DNA of 64,000 bases from Alicyclobacillus sp. GTDB taxonomy: Bacteria > Bacillota > Bacilli > Alicyclobacillales > Alicyclobacillaceae. The position numbers and the translations under genes are program-made. A model generated the notes under the pieces. It saw only the letters and a list, made by a program, of their open reading frames with translations, had not been told where the DNA came from and ran no database searches. The DNA is taken from assembly GCA_023511295.1 (NCBI GenBank), contig JAIMBT010000024.1:1-64000 (forward strand), in the 5' to 3' direction. Positions 8,668-58,364 of the stretch are shown here, piece after piece (the stretch's first letter is position 1; each line of letters starts with the position of its first letter).

Positions 8668-8785
8668 TCTGCGCGGTAACTCGGCAGCTGGCTGGCATGC
8701 GGTCGCGCACTCCCGCGGGCGCGCTCCGTGTAGCCCCTGTAGCTTTGCGAACTCACCGCCGTTTCCGGCGGGTTGCCCTTAGACG
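8668..8785 (-). ncRNA. Cyclic-di-GMP class I (GEMM-I) riboswitch aptamer
   Basis: Reading the minus strand, the leader carries the hallmark order of GEMM-I. First comes GGGCAACC, then a stem capped by a GAAA-type tetraloop (CGCCGGAAACGGCG). The signature CGCAAAGCTACAGGGGCTA follows, then a second GC-rich hairpin, and finally GCCAGCTGCCGAGTTACCG as the closing tetraloop-receptor side. An intrinsic terminator and then a GGDEF/EAL gene follow directly, the classical context. Whether ligand turns the gene on or off cannot be read with confidence, because no clear antiterminator was identified. Confidence 0.87.
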
Positions 8786-8882
8786 CTTACAGCACACGTT
8801 TGTCGTTTTCAGTCCGGTGACGCCGGTCGCGCTGTGAACCAGACCATCCGTGGCCCATCGGCACGCGGCGTACATCACCTGA

Positions 8883-12929: not shown

Positions 12930-14085
12930 CGGCCGCCCGCGCGTGGGACCCCCGTTTGACCCAGCCGAGACGCGAACAAGGGAACGGTTGACCCAGCCGA
13001 GACGCGTACAAGGGAACGCCAGTCCGCTATCCGCGCCGGACGGGGGGCCGGATCGACCCATAGCGGAACCGCGTTCCCTTGTGCGACCCGTCGCCGCCCG
13101 CGCGACCCCGTTTTCCTCGGCCGAGACGCGAACAGGGGAACGGTTGGCCCAGCCGAGACGCGGACAGGGGAACGGTTGGCCCAGCCGAGACGCGGACAGG
13201 GGAACGCCAGTCCGCTATCCGCGCCGGACGGGGCGCCATGTCCACCCATAGCGGAACCGCGTTCCCTTGTGCGACCCGTGGCCGCCCACGACGGCCCCGT
13301 TTACCCCAGCCGAGACGCGAACAAGAGAACGCCGGTCCGCTATCCGCGCCGGACGGGGGGCCGGATCGACCCATAGCGGAACCACGTTCCCTTGTGCGAC
13401 CCGTCGCCGCCCGTGGGACCCCCGTTTGGCCCAGCCGAGACGCAGACAAGAGAACGCCAGTCCGCTATCCGCGGCGAACGGGGGGCCGGATCGACCCATA
13501 GCGGAACCGCGTTCCCTTGTGCGACCCGTCGCCGCCCACGACGGCCCCGTTTACCCCAGCCGAGACGCGGACAAGGGAACGTCGGTCCGCTATCCGCGCC
13601 GGACGGGGCGCCATGTCCACCCATAGCGGAACCGCGTTCCCTTGTACGACCCGTGGCCGCCCGTGACGGCCCCGTTTACCCCAGCCGAGACGCGAACAAG
13701 GGAACGCCAGTCCGCTATCCGCGCCGGACGGGGGGCCGGATCGACCCATAGCGGAACCGCGTTCCCTTGTTCGACCCGTCGCCGCCCGTGGGACCCCCGT
13801 TTGGCCCAGCCGAGACGCGGACAGGGGAACGGTTGGCCCAGCCGAGACGCGAACAAGGGAACACCGGTCCGCTATCCGCGGCGAACGGGGGGCCGGATCG
13901 ACCCATAGCGGAACCGCGTTCCCTTGTGCGACCCGTGGCCGCCGCGACGGCCCCGTATACCTCGGCCGAGACGCGGACAAGGGAACGCCAGTCCGCTATC
14001 CGCGCCGGACGGGGCGCCATGTCGACCCGACCCGTCGCCGCCCGTGGGACCCCCGTGACGGCCGCCCGCGACGGCCCGCCCCCCA
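12930..14085. repeat. Tandem array of 125-bp units with long inverted arms
   Basis: Eight copies of a conserved unit can be anchored on GTCCGCTATCCGCG at 13022, 13210, 13335, 13460, 13585, 13710, 13867 and 13991. The spacings are 188, 125, 125, 125, 125, 157 and 124 bp. The longer gaps contain extra copies of a 31-bp sub-repeat (CCCAGCCGAGACGCG plus ACAGGGGAACGGTTGG). In each full unit the left arm ACAAGGGAACG + GTCCGCTAT is the near reverse complement of the right arm ATAGCGGAAC + CGTTCCCTTGT, about 30 bp away, so each unit can fold into a hairpin with arms of about 23 bp. The period is not a multiple of three, and all frames are open only because of composition. No coding role is supported. 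Confidence 0.95.
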
Positions 14086-43534: not shown

Positions 43535-45151
43535 GTGCATGTAAGACGGTGGTTTCGCCTCCCTGTCAAGCTCCGAAAGTGGCTGGAACCGGAGCTGTTT
43601 CAGCCGTTCGTGCTCGGTTTGTTCATCGCCCTGTCGATGTCAGAGTTCGTGCGCGGCGCGCTCGTCCTCTCGATGCTGCCCACATATGGACGGACGGTGC
43701 TTGGATTTGCAGTCGAATACACCGCCCTCGCCTTGTCTGTCAACTACCTGACGGACAACTTGCTGCGGGCGCCGGCGGGGTGGTTGGCGGACCGGATCGG
43801 CCAGCGCTTCGTCCTGCTCATCGGCTTCTCGGTGATGACGGGCGCCATCCTGTGGATGATGCACGCGCGCACGGTGGGCACGTTCATCCTCAGCCTGGCC
43901 CTGTACGGCGTGGGCCTCACTCCGGTCTGGCCTGCGGCCATTTCCGGTCTCGGGCGGGCGACGCCAGACACCAAGCGCGGCGTGTTCATGAGCTACCTGA
44001 ATATCTTCTGGCTGATGGGGTCGGGCCTTGGGCCGGTGGTCATCAACCTGGTGATTGGGCGAAGCTACCGCCCCGCGTTCTGGCTGCTGCTCGCGATGGA
44101 ACTAGCCGGTCTGGCCACGGCTTTCCTGTTGGTGCACAGGCCGCGGCGAGAGTACAATCCGGCGTTCGCAGACGGAGTCGGTGGCGCGGCGACGGCGGAA
44201 GTGGCAGCCGAGATGACGCCGACGGCCGGTACGATTGCGCCGGCGAGTGCCCTGGCCGCAACGGCGGAAGGGGCGACAAGACCCCGGGACGGCGAGGCCG
44301 TCCGGTGGGCGCATCGGATCCACCGACCTCGCCCGGACCTCCACGCGCTGTGGCACAACGTACGCGAGGTGGCGTTCCTGTTTCCCGGCATGTTCGCCCA
44401 GACGTTCGCGACCTCCTCGCTCATCCCGATTCTGTCGCTGTATGCGAAGGTCGTGTTGCATCTGAGCGGATCGATGTACAGCGCGGTACTCGTGGCGGGC
44501 GGCGCGATTACGGTGCTGCTCCTCATCCCGACGGGGAAGCTGGTGGACCGGCTGGGTCCACGGATCCCGCTGGTCGCCGGGTTCCTCATCGCCGGTGTCG
44601 GTTTGGGGACATACCCGTTCTTCCACACGTTGGCGCTGACGTACGCGATGGTCTGTACCTTCGGGCTGTGCTACGCGTTTATTCTACCGGCGTGGAATGC
44701 GGTGTTGGATCGGTCGATTGACAAGGACAAGAAGGGCGCACTGTGGGGCGTGTTCATGACGGTGGAGGGCCTGGGCTCCGCAGCAGGTCCGTACATCGGT
44801 GGATTGGTGTGGGATCACATCAGCCCGTCGGCGCCATTCTGGGTCAGCGCGATGGTGATTGTGGTGATGGGGCTGCTGTACACGGTTCTGCCGATTGACC
44901 GGCGGCACCGCGCGGCTGCGGCTGCGGCTGCGGCTGCGGCTGCGGCTGCGGCTGCGGCTGCGGGCGCGGGCGCGGGTTCGGGCGCGGGTTCGGGCGCGGG
45001 TTCGGATGCGGGTTCGGATGCGGGTTCGGGCGCGGGCGCCGATGTGCGGGGTCAGGGAGAGGACCGGAGCAGCCGGGGCCATGTGGGCGATGAACGACGG
45101 GGACCAGCCCGACCGAGGACATGGGGGCGACGCCCGGGAAGAGGCCGGTGA
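43535..45151 (+). CDS. MFS transporter with low-complexity C-terminal tail
   Basis: This major facilitator has about 12 helices over residues 24-455. The loop 2-3 motif GWLADRIGQRFVLLIG (near 86-101) and its second-half counterpart GKLVDRLGPRIPLVAG are present. A cytosolic loop rich in Ala/Thr (near 215-270) links the halves. After the last helix the protein ends in about 85 residues of poly-Ala, Gly/Ser/Ala and Arg-rich low complexity, encoded by a GCGGCT microsatellite, so the tail is probably dispensable. The GTG at 43535 has GAGGAA about 10 nt upstream. It is divergent from upp. The substrate is unknown. Confidence 0.85.
   Translation: MHVRRWFRLPVKLRKWLEPELFQPFVLGLFIALSMSEFVRGALVLSMLPTYGRTVLGFAVEYTALALSVNYLTDNLLRAPAGWLADRIGQRFVLLIGFSVMTGAILWMMHARTVGTFILSLALYGVGLTPVWPAAISGLGRATPDTKRGVFMSYLNIFWLMGSGLGPVVINLVIGRSYRPAFWLLLAMELAGLATAFLLVHRPRREYNPAFADGVGGAATAEVAAEMTPTAGTIAPASALAATAEGATRPRDGEAVRWAHRIHRPRPDLHALWHNVREVAFLFPGMFAQTFATSSLIPILSLYAKVVLHLSGSMYSAVLVAGGAITVLLLIPTGKLVDRLGPRIPLVAGFLIAGVGLGTYPFFHTLALTYAMVCTFGLCYAFILPAWNAVLDRSIDKDKKGALWGVFMTVEGLGSAAGPYIGGLVWDHISPSAPFWVSAMVIVVMGLLYTVLPIDRRHRAAAAAAAAAAAAAAAAAGAGAGSGAGSGAGSDAGSDAGSGAGADVRGQGEDRSSRGHVGDERRGPARPRTWGRRPGRGR
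44912..45035. repeat. Hexanucleotide microsatellite in the MFS gene
   Basis: There are eight perfect tandem copies of GCGGCT at 44912-44959, followed by GCGGGC, GCGGGTTCG and GCGGGTTCGGAT variants to about 45035. It encodes 16 alanines and then Gly/Ala/Ser/Asp. Unit length keeps the frame. Confidence 0.93.
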
Positions 45152-45212: not shown

Positions 45213-45300
45213 CAGCGGAACGCCGTTCCCTTGTCCGAGCCACACCCGCCACCCACAGGCGCAACAAGGGAACCGCGTTCCCCTGTCGGCCGGGCGCAGA
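45213..45300. repeat. Single degenerate copy of the array core motif
   Basis: The sequence AGCGGAACGCCGTTCCCTTGT-like (split as AGCGGAACG + CCGTTCCCTTGT) is followed 30-35 bp later by AACAAGGGAACCGCG and GTTCCCCTGT. These are the same core blocks as in the arrays near 13 and 56 kb. It lies in the 239 bp between the convergent MFS and glyA genes, where no terminator or gene was recognised. Confidence 0.75.
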
Positions 45301-54771: not shown

Positions 54772-54926
54772 GGTCGAACCTCCGATTCGCACCGCCGACC
54801 AGACCTCCAGCCCTTTCATCTGGTCGTGGTGAATTCCGACCCCCGCTTGAGCGTGCAGTCGCCCGTTTGCCGCCGGGAGCGTGGGTGCCGTGCCCGGGGC
54901 ATGCGTCGCTGCCCGCGCGGGTTTGG

Positions 54927-55050
54927 GGCGCCTGTCCGCCGCTTGCGGCGCTGCACGCGAGGGCTTGGGGCGCCTGTCCGTCGCTTCCGACGCTGCACGC
55001 GAGGGCTTGGGGCGCCTGTCCGCCGCTTGCGGCGCTGCACGCCCGGGTGC
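54927..55050. repeat. 42-bp tandem repeat between rpmE and prfA
   Basis: Three copies start with CGCCTGTCCG at 54929, 54971 and 55013. Each contains a short perfect hairpin: CGCCG CTTG CGGCG in copies 1 and 3, CGTCG CTTC CGACG in copy 2. The middle copy differs by a paired C-to-T and G-to-A change that keeps the stem. It lies in the 433-bp prfA-rpmE gap, which holds no supported gene. Confidence 0.88.
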
Positions 55051-55204: not shown

Positions 55205-55417
55205 TTACGCCTGGTTGGACTTGATCCCGTACTTCTTGTTGAACTTTTCCACACGGCCGCCGGCATCGACAAACTTCTGTTTGCCGGTAAAGAACGGATG
55301 GCAGTTGGAGCAAATTTCAACGCGAAGGTTTTCCTTCACGGACCCGGTCTCATAAGTCGCACCACAAGCGCAGGTGATGGTCGTCGCATGGTACTCCGGA
55401 TGGATTCCGGTCTTCAT
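55205..55417 (-). CDS. rpmE: 50S ribosomal protein bL31 (zinc form)
   Basis: This large-subunit ribosomal protein bridges the subunits. The 70-aa product starts [19 protein letters not shown] and keeps the paired cysteines (TCAC, then CSNC) of the zinc-binding C+ form. The end is [12 protein letters not shown]. The ATG at 55417 has GAGGTG 6 nt upstream. It lies between rho and prfA, as in B. subtilis. Confidence 0.95.
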
Positions 55418-55457
55418 GGGATTCACCTCGATTCATTGGCATGAGACACTGCGAGCT

Positions 55458-55574: not shown

Positions 55575-56290
55575 GAGCGGAACCGCCGTCCACTATCCCG
55601 GCCCGGCCGCCGCAAATCGCCCCGATTTGGAGCAGCGCGCGGGCCAACAAGGGAATGCCGTTCCCTTATGCGCCGCAACGCACCCGCAACGCGGCCCGAT
55701 AGTGGAACCGCCGTCCGCTATCCCGGCCTGGCCGCCCCAAATCACCCCGATTTGGAGCAGCGCGCGGGCCAACAAGGGAATGCCGTTCCCTTATGCGCCC
55801 CAACGCGCCCGCATCGCGGCCCGATAGCGGAACCGCCGTCCGCTATCCCGGCCTGGCCGCCCCAAATCACCCCGATTTGGGGCAGCGCGCGGGCCAACAA
55901 GGGAATGCCGTTCCCTTATGCGCCGCAACGCACCCACACCCGCGCCCGCATCGCGGCCCGATAGCGGAACCGCCGTCCGCTATCCCCGCCCGGCCGCCCC
56001 AAATCACCCCGATTTGGAGCAGCGCGCGGGCCAACAAGGGAATGCCGTTCCCTTATGCGCCGCAACGCACCCACACCCGCGCCCACATCGCGGCCCGATA
56101 GCGGAACCGCCGTCCGCTCTCCCGGCCTGGCCGCCCCAAATCACCCCGATTTGGAGCAGCGCGCGGGCCAACAAGGGAATGCCGTTCCCTTATGCACCGC
56201 AACGCGCCCACACCCGCGCCCACACCCGCACCCACACCCGCACCCGCATCGCGGCCCGATAGCGGAACCGCCGTCCGCTCTCCAACCCGA
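55575..56290. repeat. Second tandem array, 125/137-bp units, related to the array near 13 kb
   Basis: Five units are anchored on AACAAGGGAATGCCG at 55646, 55771, 55896, 56033 and 56170, with spacings of 125, 125, 137 and 137 bp. The longer units carry an extra 12-bp CCCACACCCGCG-type insert. Each unit has three local palindromes: ACAAGGGAATG/CGTTCCCTTAT, ATAGCGGAAC/GTCCGCTAT and CCAAATC/GATTTGG. The first two use the same half-sites as the array at 12.9-14.1 kb, but paired next to each other instead of across a 30-bp loop. It lies between the divergently oriented rpmE and a small plus-strand frame. No coding role is supported. Confidence 0.95.
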
Positions 56291-56456: not shown

Positions 56457-56594
56457 TTGCGTCGACGTATCACTGCATTTCTCGTTAGCTTGTCGTTTGT
56501 CGCGAGTGCGTTGACACTGGTGGCGGCTGCACCGCAGGTCGTTGAATGGCCGCCGTGGATGGATTCGCCCACGAGCACGACATCCGTCAGTTGA
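56457..56594 (+). CDS. Possible small secreted peptide
   Basis: This 45-codon frame from TTG 56457 has AGGAGG 8 nt upstream. The product has an Arg-rich start (RRRITAFLV), a hydrophobic core and a signal-peptidase-like end (ALTLVAAAP). This would release a mature peptide of about 20 residues containing VVEWPPWMDS and a Thr/Ser tail. No family was recognised. It follows the second array directly. The same frame stays open for about 160 codons after the TGA, so a longer gene broken by a stop is also possible. Confidence 0.45.
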   Translation: MRRRITAFLVSLSFVASALTLVAAAPQVVEWPPWMDSPTSTTSVS

Positions 56595-57110: not shown

Positions 57111-58364
57111 TCAGGCCTTCTTTTCTCTCTGCAGTTCCAGACCCGCGAGGAATTCTGCATTCGTCTTGTAGTGACGGAATTTCCGAATGAACATCTCGGT
57201 GAAGTCCTGGTTATCTCCCATCGACTTGCGGATAGCCCAAACGCGGTCCAACGTCTCCTTCGGCAACAACAGCTCCTCGCGGCGCGTGCCAGAACGGCGG
57301 ATGTCGAGCGCCGGGAAGACGCGTTTCTCGGCGAGTCGCCGATCTAAGTGCAGTTCCATGTTGCCCGTACCCTTGAACTCTTCGTAGATGACGTCGTCCA
57401 TCCGAGATCCAGTGTCAATCAACGCCGTGGCGAGGATGGTCAGACTACCGCCTTCCTCGACCTTTCGAGCCGCGCCGAAAAACCGCTTCGGGCGATGGAA
57501 CGCTGCCGGGTCAATACCACCGGACAGGGTTCGCCCGCTGGGTGGGACGACGAGGTTGTAAGCGCGGGCCAAACGCGTGATGCTGTCCAGTAGAATGACG
57601 ACGTCGCGCTTGTGCTCCACGAGGCGCAGCGCACGCTCGAGGACCAGTTCTGCCACCTTGATGTGGTTCTCCGGCAACTCGTCGAACGTCGAAGCAATGA
57701 CTTCGCCGTTGACAGACCGCTGCATATCGGTGACCTCTTCCGGACGCTCGTCAATCAACAGGACAATCAGCTTCGTGTCTGGGTAGTTCGTTGAGATACT
57801 GTTGGCAATCTCCTGCAACAACACCGTCTTGCCGGCCTTTGGCGGCGCCACAATCAATCCGCGCTGGCCGAATCCAACCGGTGCGAACAGGTCAATCAAC
57901 CGCGCTGCCAACTTATTCGGTGTTGTCTCCATGACGATGTGTTCTTGAGGGAAAAGTGGTGTAAGTGCGGGAAAGTGAAGGCGTTCCGACGCTTCCTGTG
58001 GGCTGACACCGTTGACAGCTTCGACGTGCAGCAACCCAAAGTACCGCTCGTTCTCTTTCGGAGGTCTCACTTTTCCGGAAACCAAGTCACCCGTTCGCAA
58101 GTCGAAGCGCCGAATCTGCGAAGCTGCGACGTAGATGTCCTCTGCGCTGGGAAGGTACCCAACGGGCCTCAGGAACCCGTAACCGTCCTGCATAATCTCG
58201 AGGACACCCTCGGCGAACATCAGTCCGTCCTTCTCAGCCTGAGCCTTCAGTATCGCAAAGATGAGTTCCCGTTTCTTCATGTTGCCGTAGTACGGAATCT
58301 GGAACTCCTTCGCGTACTGGTACAGCTCCGTCAGCTTCTTCGATTCTAGTTCCTTCATGTCCAA
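57111..58364 (-). CDS. rho: Transcription termination factor Rho
   Basis: Rho is a hexameric RNA helicase that terminates transcription and limits antisense RNA. It has an N-terminal Rho_N helical domain ([16 protein letters not shown]), a cold-shock-like RNA-binding fold ([21 protein letters not shown] near 54-74) and the ATPase core. P-loop [15 protein letters not shown] lies near 173, Walker [17 protein letters not shown] near 255, and the R-loop/Q-loop region ([23 protein letters not shown]) follows. Length is 417 aa. The start is TTG 58364, with GGGGGA 6 nt upstream. An ATG two codons later is spaced less well. Confidence 0.96.

What the first reader, a model, noticed from the sequence alone, without database searches (positions are those of the whole stretch)
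55575..56290. A second array with the same 125-bp period and the same half-sites, but re-paired
Forty-one kilobases away, five units of 125 or 137 bp use the blocks AACAAGGGAA, GTTCCCTT, ATAGCGGAAC and GTCCGCTAT again. In the first array the order is B C loop C' B'. Here it is B B' spacer C' C, giving adjacent small palindromes. Sharing both period and half-sites while changing arrangement suggests a family of modular repeats whose unit length is constrained, which I do not recognise from known bacterial repeats.
Basis: seen in the sequence. Interest (0 to 1): 0.75.

Follow-up and report, generated by a model that had tools for sequence, protein, structure and literature searches.

The report
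Helically phased palindrome arrays between genes
The two repeat arrays are members of a genome-wide family in which one 21-base palindrome recurs between genes at spacings of whole turns of the DNA helix (5, 6, 7 or 9 turns), which suggests docking sites for an unknown protein that assembles along one face of the DNA.

Summary
Palindrome centres alternate 52 and 73 bp apart (sum 125) at 28 places in this 3.43-Mb genome; some are probably two sides of one assembly break. Alicyclobacillus ferrooxydans has long 51/52-bp arrays. Gordonibacillus, Cohnella and Paenibacillus carry symmetric quartets, 51-62-51 or 51-73-51. Among 103 spacings other than 52, 90% lie within 1.5 bp of a multiple of 10.4 bp. 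The same core found in other phyla in the same scan shows no such phasing (p=2e-12). Spacers diverge while their length stays fixed. Strong elements almost never occur alone. The variable positions do not covary as a hairpin would. No Rfam family, REP transposase (in this genome), target-site duplication, extra ParB or origin bias was found. Best reading: obligately cooperative, helically phased binding sites for an unidentified dimeric DNA-binding protein, probably architectural. The protein and function are unknown, and I found no published description in the library searched.

The parts
55575..56280 (.). Array 2: 11 palindromes (21-bp cores starting at 55575, 55648, 55700, 55773, 55825, 55898, 55962, 56035, 56099, 56172, 56260), spacings 73/52 alternating, with 64 and 88 where 12-bp simple-repeat copies were inserted
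12956..14030 (.). Array 1: 15 palindromes between 13009 and 13998 with 52/73 spacings (136 and 105 where extra 32-bp half-units lie)
45213..45285 (.). Minimal unit: one pair of palindromes 52 bp apart, between an MFS gene (+) and glyA (-)
55940..55951 (.). Approximate place of the first 12-bp (CACCCACACCCG-type) insertion that turns a 52-bp spacing into 64; the second is near 56077-56088 and three copies lie at 56203-56248
   Evidence: direct comparison of units; the exact phase of the insertion is arbitrary
55205..55426 (-). rpmE-like gene (ribosomal protein L31), left neighbour of array 2
   Evidence: translation; homologues at 68-88% identity in 8 genomes
57111..58364 (-). rho gene, right neighbour of array 2
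   Evidence: Rho_N, Rho_RNA_bind, ATP-synt_ab

Best explanation
Shown by sequence: one palindrome (TARNGGAAC-NNN-GTTCCNYTA) is deployed in groups. Neighbours within a group are a whole number of B-DNA turns apart: 5 (50-52 bp), 6 (61-63), 7 (71-74), 9 (92-95). The sequence between them is largely free to change but its length is kept. The groups sit between genes and are rare between divergent genes. Inferred: each palindrome is a double-stranded binding site for a dimeric DNA-binding protein. Dimers on the same face of the helix contact each other, so one site alone is of no use and phase must be kept. The product is a small nucleoprotein patch that bends, wraps or bridges DNA (an architectural or roadblock role) rather than the operator of a particular gene. 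The groups have been gained and lost between lineages by an unidentified route, and within a lineage they grow by tandem duplication.
For: Spacing classes. Control from other phyla in the same scan: 29 of 91 spacings on-turn against 50 of 56 here, Fisher p=2.4e-12, and flanks 3% against 89%. Spacer identity 57% and 73% beside element identity 92% and 93% without length change. Within arrays, element positions differ 12% against 22% for spacers. Clustered against isolated strong elements: 208 to 2 here, 169 to 1 in three related genomes. No mirror covariation at the variable half-site positions. Intergenic; 23 convergent against 4 divergent settings.
Against: No binding protein was identified; no shared neighbouring gene and no extra ParB in the own family. 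Spacings within one genome are related by descent, so the 103 values are not independent; counting each value once per genome group leaves 13 of 25 on-turn (p=0.012). Some spacings are off-phase (60, 64, 77, 79, 88), so the constraint is not absolute. Two MAGs (L045, L106) have GGAACNNNGTTCC arrays at 68 bp, off-phase.
Confidence: 0.6

Rival explanations
1. REP/BIME-type palindromes spread by a single-strand (Y1/HUH) transposase of the RAYT kind and recognised as ssDNA or RNA hairpins.
For: Intergenic, palindromic, many copies, clustered, rare between divergent genes.
Against: No Y1_Tnp in this genome, in A. ferrooxydans with 299 pairs, or in 9 of 12 array genomes in all. Variable positions do not covary; at one position in this genome left and right bases match instead of pairing (z=-5). 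Helical phasing of the double strand is not expected for hairpins.
Confidence: 0.12
2. A structured non-coding RNA or string of transcription terminators: the palindromes act as hairpins in the transcript at gene ends.
For: Perfect palindromes can fold; convergent and tandem gene-end placement.
Against: No Rfam match, no compensatory changes, spacing locked to helical turns rather than free, no U-tract logic in a palindromic element that is the same on both strands.
Confidence: 0.08
3. Non-autonomous transposons (MITEs) or recombinase sites: the quartet is a mobile unit whose ends are palindromes bound by a transposase or resolvase, and phasing serves the synaptic complex.
For: In G. kamchatkensis similarity between copies ends at the outermost palindromes; quartets are symmetric; array 2 is absent from the orthologous gap in 8 relatives.
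Against: No target-site duplication; C. lubricantis copies share about 20 bp beyond the first palindrome; arrays in this genome and A. ferrooxydans are open-ended tandem forms; palindromes stay conserved while spacers diverge, unlike decaying transposon copies.
Confidence: 0.12
4. Founder effect: all arrays descend from one ancestral array and the spacing simply has not changed, with no selection on phase.
For: Some spacers keep residual similarity between arrays (up to 68-74%); spacing within one genome is strongly alike.
Against: The classes 51/52, 62, 73 and 94 recur across two orders with almost nothing between; palindromes are 92-93% conserved beside 57-73% spacers of unchanged length; strong isolated elements are almost absent.
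Confidence: 0.08

Closest known systems
REP elements and BIMEs (Escherichia, Pseudomonas, Stenotrophomonas, Xanthomonas)
   Same: Short palindromes, intergenic, dozens to hundreds per genome, in regularly spaced clusters (PMC2817692).
   Different: No Y1/RAYT nuclease in this genome or most array genomes; different sequence, no GTAG; no hairpin covariation; spacing set by helical turns; solitary elements almost absent.
F-plasmid sopC and other tandem centromere sites (from general knowledge)
   Same: Tandem units each carrying a small inverted repeat that binds a dimer cooperatively; a possible way of working.
   Different: Dispersed over the chromosome at about 25 places, not one site; no origin bias; no extra ParB beyond the two found in all relatives; 52/73 or 51/62 bp spacing instead of 43 bp.
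ERIC, RU-1/2/3 and other short intergenic repeats (about 103-168 bp; PMC2759123)
   Same: Similar unit size, intergenic, palindromic.
   Different: Those are sequence-conserved along their length (general knowledge); here only the palindromes and the distances are conserved.

Membership tests
REP/BIME | Many intergenic palindromes in regularly spaced clusters | tested here: met
REP/BIME | Associated Y1 (RAYT) transposase in the genome | tested here: not met
   absent in the own genome and in 9 of 12 array genomes
REP/BIME | GTAG-type 5' motif and imperfect hairpin maintained by pairing | tested here: not met
   consensus lacks it and there is no mirror covariation; RAYT-linked REPs listed in PMC2817692 mostly begin (T)GTAG or GTGG
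REP/BIME | Binding of gyrase, IHF or DNA polymerase I | not testable with these tools
   needs biochemistry
MITE | Target-site duplication at the ends | tested here: not met
   no duplication in 32 quartets of two genomes apart from one 5-bp match
ParB-parS type centromere | Cognate extra ParB and position near the origin | tested here: not met
   two ParB-like genes as in all relatives tested; array and control regions equally far from the origin, p=0.98
Structured RNA families of Rfam 15 | Match above gathering score | tested here: not met
CRISPR | Identical repeats with unique spacers | tested here: not met
   spacers repeat from unit to unit and units are about 84-95% alike; cas genes were not searched

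The most novel reading that the evidence does not exclude
A new kind of bacterial chromosome module: a four-palindrome (5-6-5 or 5-7-5 turn) or open-ended phased array that nucleates a specific protein-DNA wrap or filament at dozens of intergenic sites, a sequence-directed architectural unit with its own unknown protein, in Alicyclobacillaceae and Paenibacillales.
Probability: 0.3. Interest if true: 0.88.

Novelty: new variant of a known kind. Interest (0 to 1): 0.72.

Why it matters
Bacterial intergenic palindromes are usually explained as hairpins or transposon relics. Here the conserved quantities are the palindrome and the helical phase, not the sequence between, which points to a double-strand nucleoprotein assembly. 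Spacing classes at 5, 6, 7 and 9 turns over many diverged spacers give a ready-made set of variants for testing cooperativity and DNA geometry, and a four-site probe gives a handle for fishing out the protein.

Tried and rejected
Hairpin/RNA reading: no covariation at the variable positions, no Rfam match. RAYT/REP spread: no Y1_Tnp in this genome or most array genomes. MITE: no target-site duplication. A shared neighbouring gene that could encode the binder: an all-against-all comparison of ORFs around the arrays gave no recurrent array-linked family. Extra ParB: none in the own family. Origin-proximal clustering, suggested by this window and by one Paenibacillus chromosome: rejected by mapping 15 array and 9 control regions on a relative. 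Orthologous location of array 2: absent from the rho-rpmE gap of 8 relatives. Plasmid or phage origin: no plasmid hit; of three viral-contig hits, one has the length and array sequence of a G. kamchatkensis contig, the other two were not pursued. Literature: no description found.

Full report
What is there. The window holds three members of one repeat family: array 1 (12956-14030), a single pair (45213-45285) and array 2 (55575-56280). A scan for the half-sites shows that all are made of one palindrome of 21-23 bp, AYARSGGAAC-NNN-GTTCCSYTRT in this genome, almost always with a 3-base centre. Every combination of left and right flavour occurs in other arrays, so 're-paired' is correct but is one case of free combination. 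Centres alternate 52 and 73 bp; 125 is their sum. The 137-bp units of array 2 are 125 plus a 12-bp simple-repeat insertion in the 52-bp spacer, and the final 161 has three such insertions.

Beyond chance. GTTCCCTTNT occurs 104 times in the genome against 13 for the reversed control. Pairs of cores exactly 52 bp apart occur 72 times against none. In the stretches read (about 0.84 Mb, made of array flanks, control stretches and this window) there are 28 array or pair places, most showing 52 and 73; several lie at contig ends and are probably two sides of one array.

Relatives. A scan of named genomes found the same palindrome with the same flanks in Alicyclobacillus ferrooxydans and in Paenibacillus, Cohnella and Gordonibacillus species. 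In A. ferrooxydans (genome G019, identified by its contig lengths; 299 strict pairs) arrays run at 51/52 bp. In Paenibacillales the usual unit is a quartet with symmetric spacing 51-62-51, sometimes 51-73-51. Strict pairs occur in 2 of 41 genomes of the own family, 14 of 105 of the Gordonibacillus family, and only in the own genome in a sample of 400 Bacilli, so the distribution is patchy.

Helical phasing. Scans that accepted all spacings of 39-69 and 53-83 bp in 11-13 genomes, and of 48-63 bp in 105 genomes, listed essentially only 50-52, 61-63 and 71-73 (long lists were cut off by the tool). Over 95 loci, 103 spacings outside the 52 class lie within 1.5 bp of multiples of 10.4 bp in 90% of cases, against 29% expected. 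These values are not all independent; counting each value once per genome group leaves 13 of 25 (p=0.012). A natural control comes from the same database scan: the same core in other phyla (Chloroflexota, Bacteroidota, Streptomyces and others) has evenly spread spacings and lacks the flanks; Fisher p=2.4e-12.

What is constrained. In quartets of G. kamchatkensis, element identity is 92% and spacer identity 57% at identical length; in C. lubricantis 93% and 73% (the quartets compared were those of one spacing class, but nearly all others differ by 1 bp or by one turn). In this genome the spacers of most arrays are close to shuffled expectation, with a few residual similarities. Inside arrays, element positions differ half as often as spacers. 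At score 17 or more, elements in clusters number 208 against 2 isolated here, and 169 against 1 in three related genomes (array 1 is counted twice because two stretches overlap, and the related stretches were chosen for holding arrays). A lone site therefore appears not to be kept. The variable positions of the palindrome show no compensatory change; at one position in this genome left and right fail to pair more often than chance (z=-5), the opposite of a hairpin, although elements within an array are not independent.

Context. Arrays are intergenic; 23 lie between convergent and 4 between divergent genes by a simple ORF caller. Array 2 lies between rho and rpmE in a glpX-rho-rpmE-prfA run (rpmE named from its sequence). 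The same gap in eight relatives has no array, so it is not a conserved regulator of these genes. Array loci show no bias towards the origin.

Mechanism. Shown: the element, the phasing, the clustering, spacers free in sequence but fixed in length, and no sign of hairpin selection. Inferred: a dimeric protein on double-stranded DNA, side-by-side contacts, an architectural role. The symmetric 5-6-5 quartet would be a closed four-dimer assembly; the 52/73 and 51/52 arrays would be open-ended versions. Not known: the protein, the consequence, the route of spread. Excluded or weakened: Rfam families, a Y1 transposase in this genome and most array genomes, target-site duplication, an extra ParB in the own family.

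Comparison. It resembles REP/BIME elements in place and clustering, and phased operator or sopC arrays in design, but fails tested defining features of each. No description was found in the open literature held; subscription papers could not be searched. I therefore file it as a new variant of the dispersed intergenic palindrome kind, with a fair chance that it is a new kind of DNA-architecture module.

Noticed in passing
8680-8787 (-): c-di-GMP-I riboswitch (Rfam RF01051, 42.8 bits).
   Followed up: no
12956-13018, 13120-13206, 13801-13862: A 32-bp tandem mini-unit in array 1 (CCCAGCCGAGACGCGRACARGGGAACGGTTGG) carries only one half-site and pushes the next full element out of the 73-bp spacing.
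   Followed up: partly
54902-55042: A separate 42-bp GC-rich tandem repeat (3.4 copies) between prfA and rpmE, unrelated to the palindrome arrays.
   Followed up: no
44912-45036: A 6-bp tandem repeat (GCGGGT, about 21 copies) inside the MFS transporter ORF next to the element pair.
   Followed up: no
56459-56593 (+): A possible small gene right of array 2: AGGAGG, TTG start, signal-peptide-like N terminus; no other evidence.
   Followed up: no
L160-L172 (G. kamchatkensis quartets): One 51-bp spacer of most quartets holds direct repeats of CGGGAAAT 10-11 bp apart, again one helical turn; half of it resembles the Noc site ATTTCCCGGGAAAT (Noc site from memory).
   Followed up: partly
L045, L106 (Paenibacillaceae MAGs SIG286, SIG288): GGAACNNNGTTCC arrays at 68 bp, which is off-phase; perhaps another family.
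   Followed up: no
L020 941 and L098 1847-2588: In gene neighbourhoods shared by this genome and A. ferrooxydans, the former has one weak element and the latter a 15-element array near the end of the same gene.
   Followed up: partly
G097 C1 6.456, 6.523, 6.561 Mb and G044 C7 125, 184, 224 kb: Two Paenibacillus genomes have array clusters with similar mutual distances, so some positions may be orthologous there.
   Followed up: partly
L209 (relative G018), 1163-1249 and 1890-2113: Other short tandem repeats (11 and 13 bp) flank rpmE in this relative, which has no palindrome array there.
   Followed up: no
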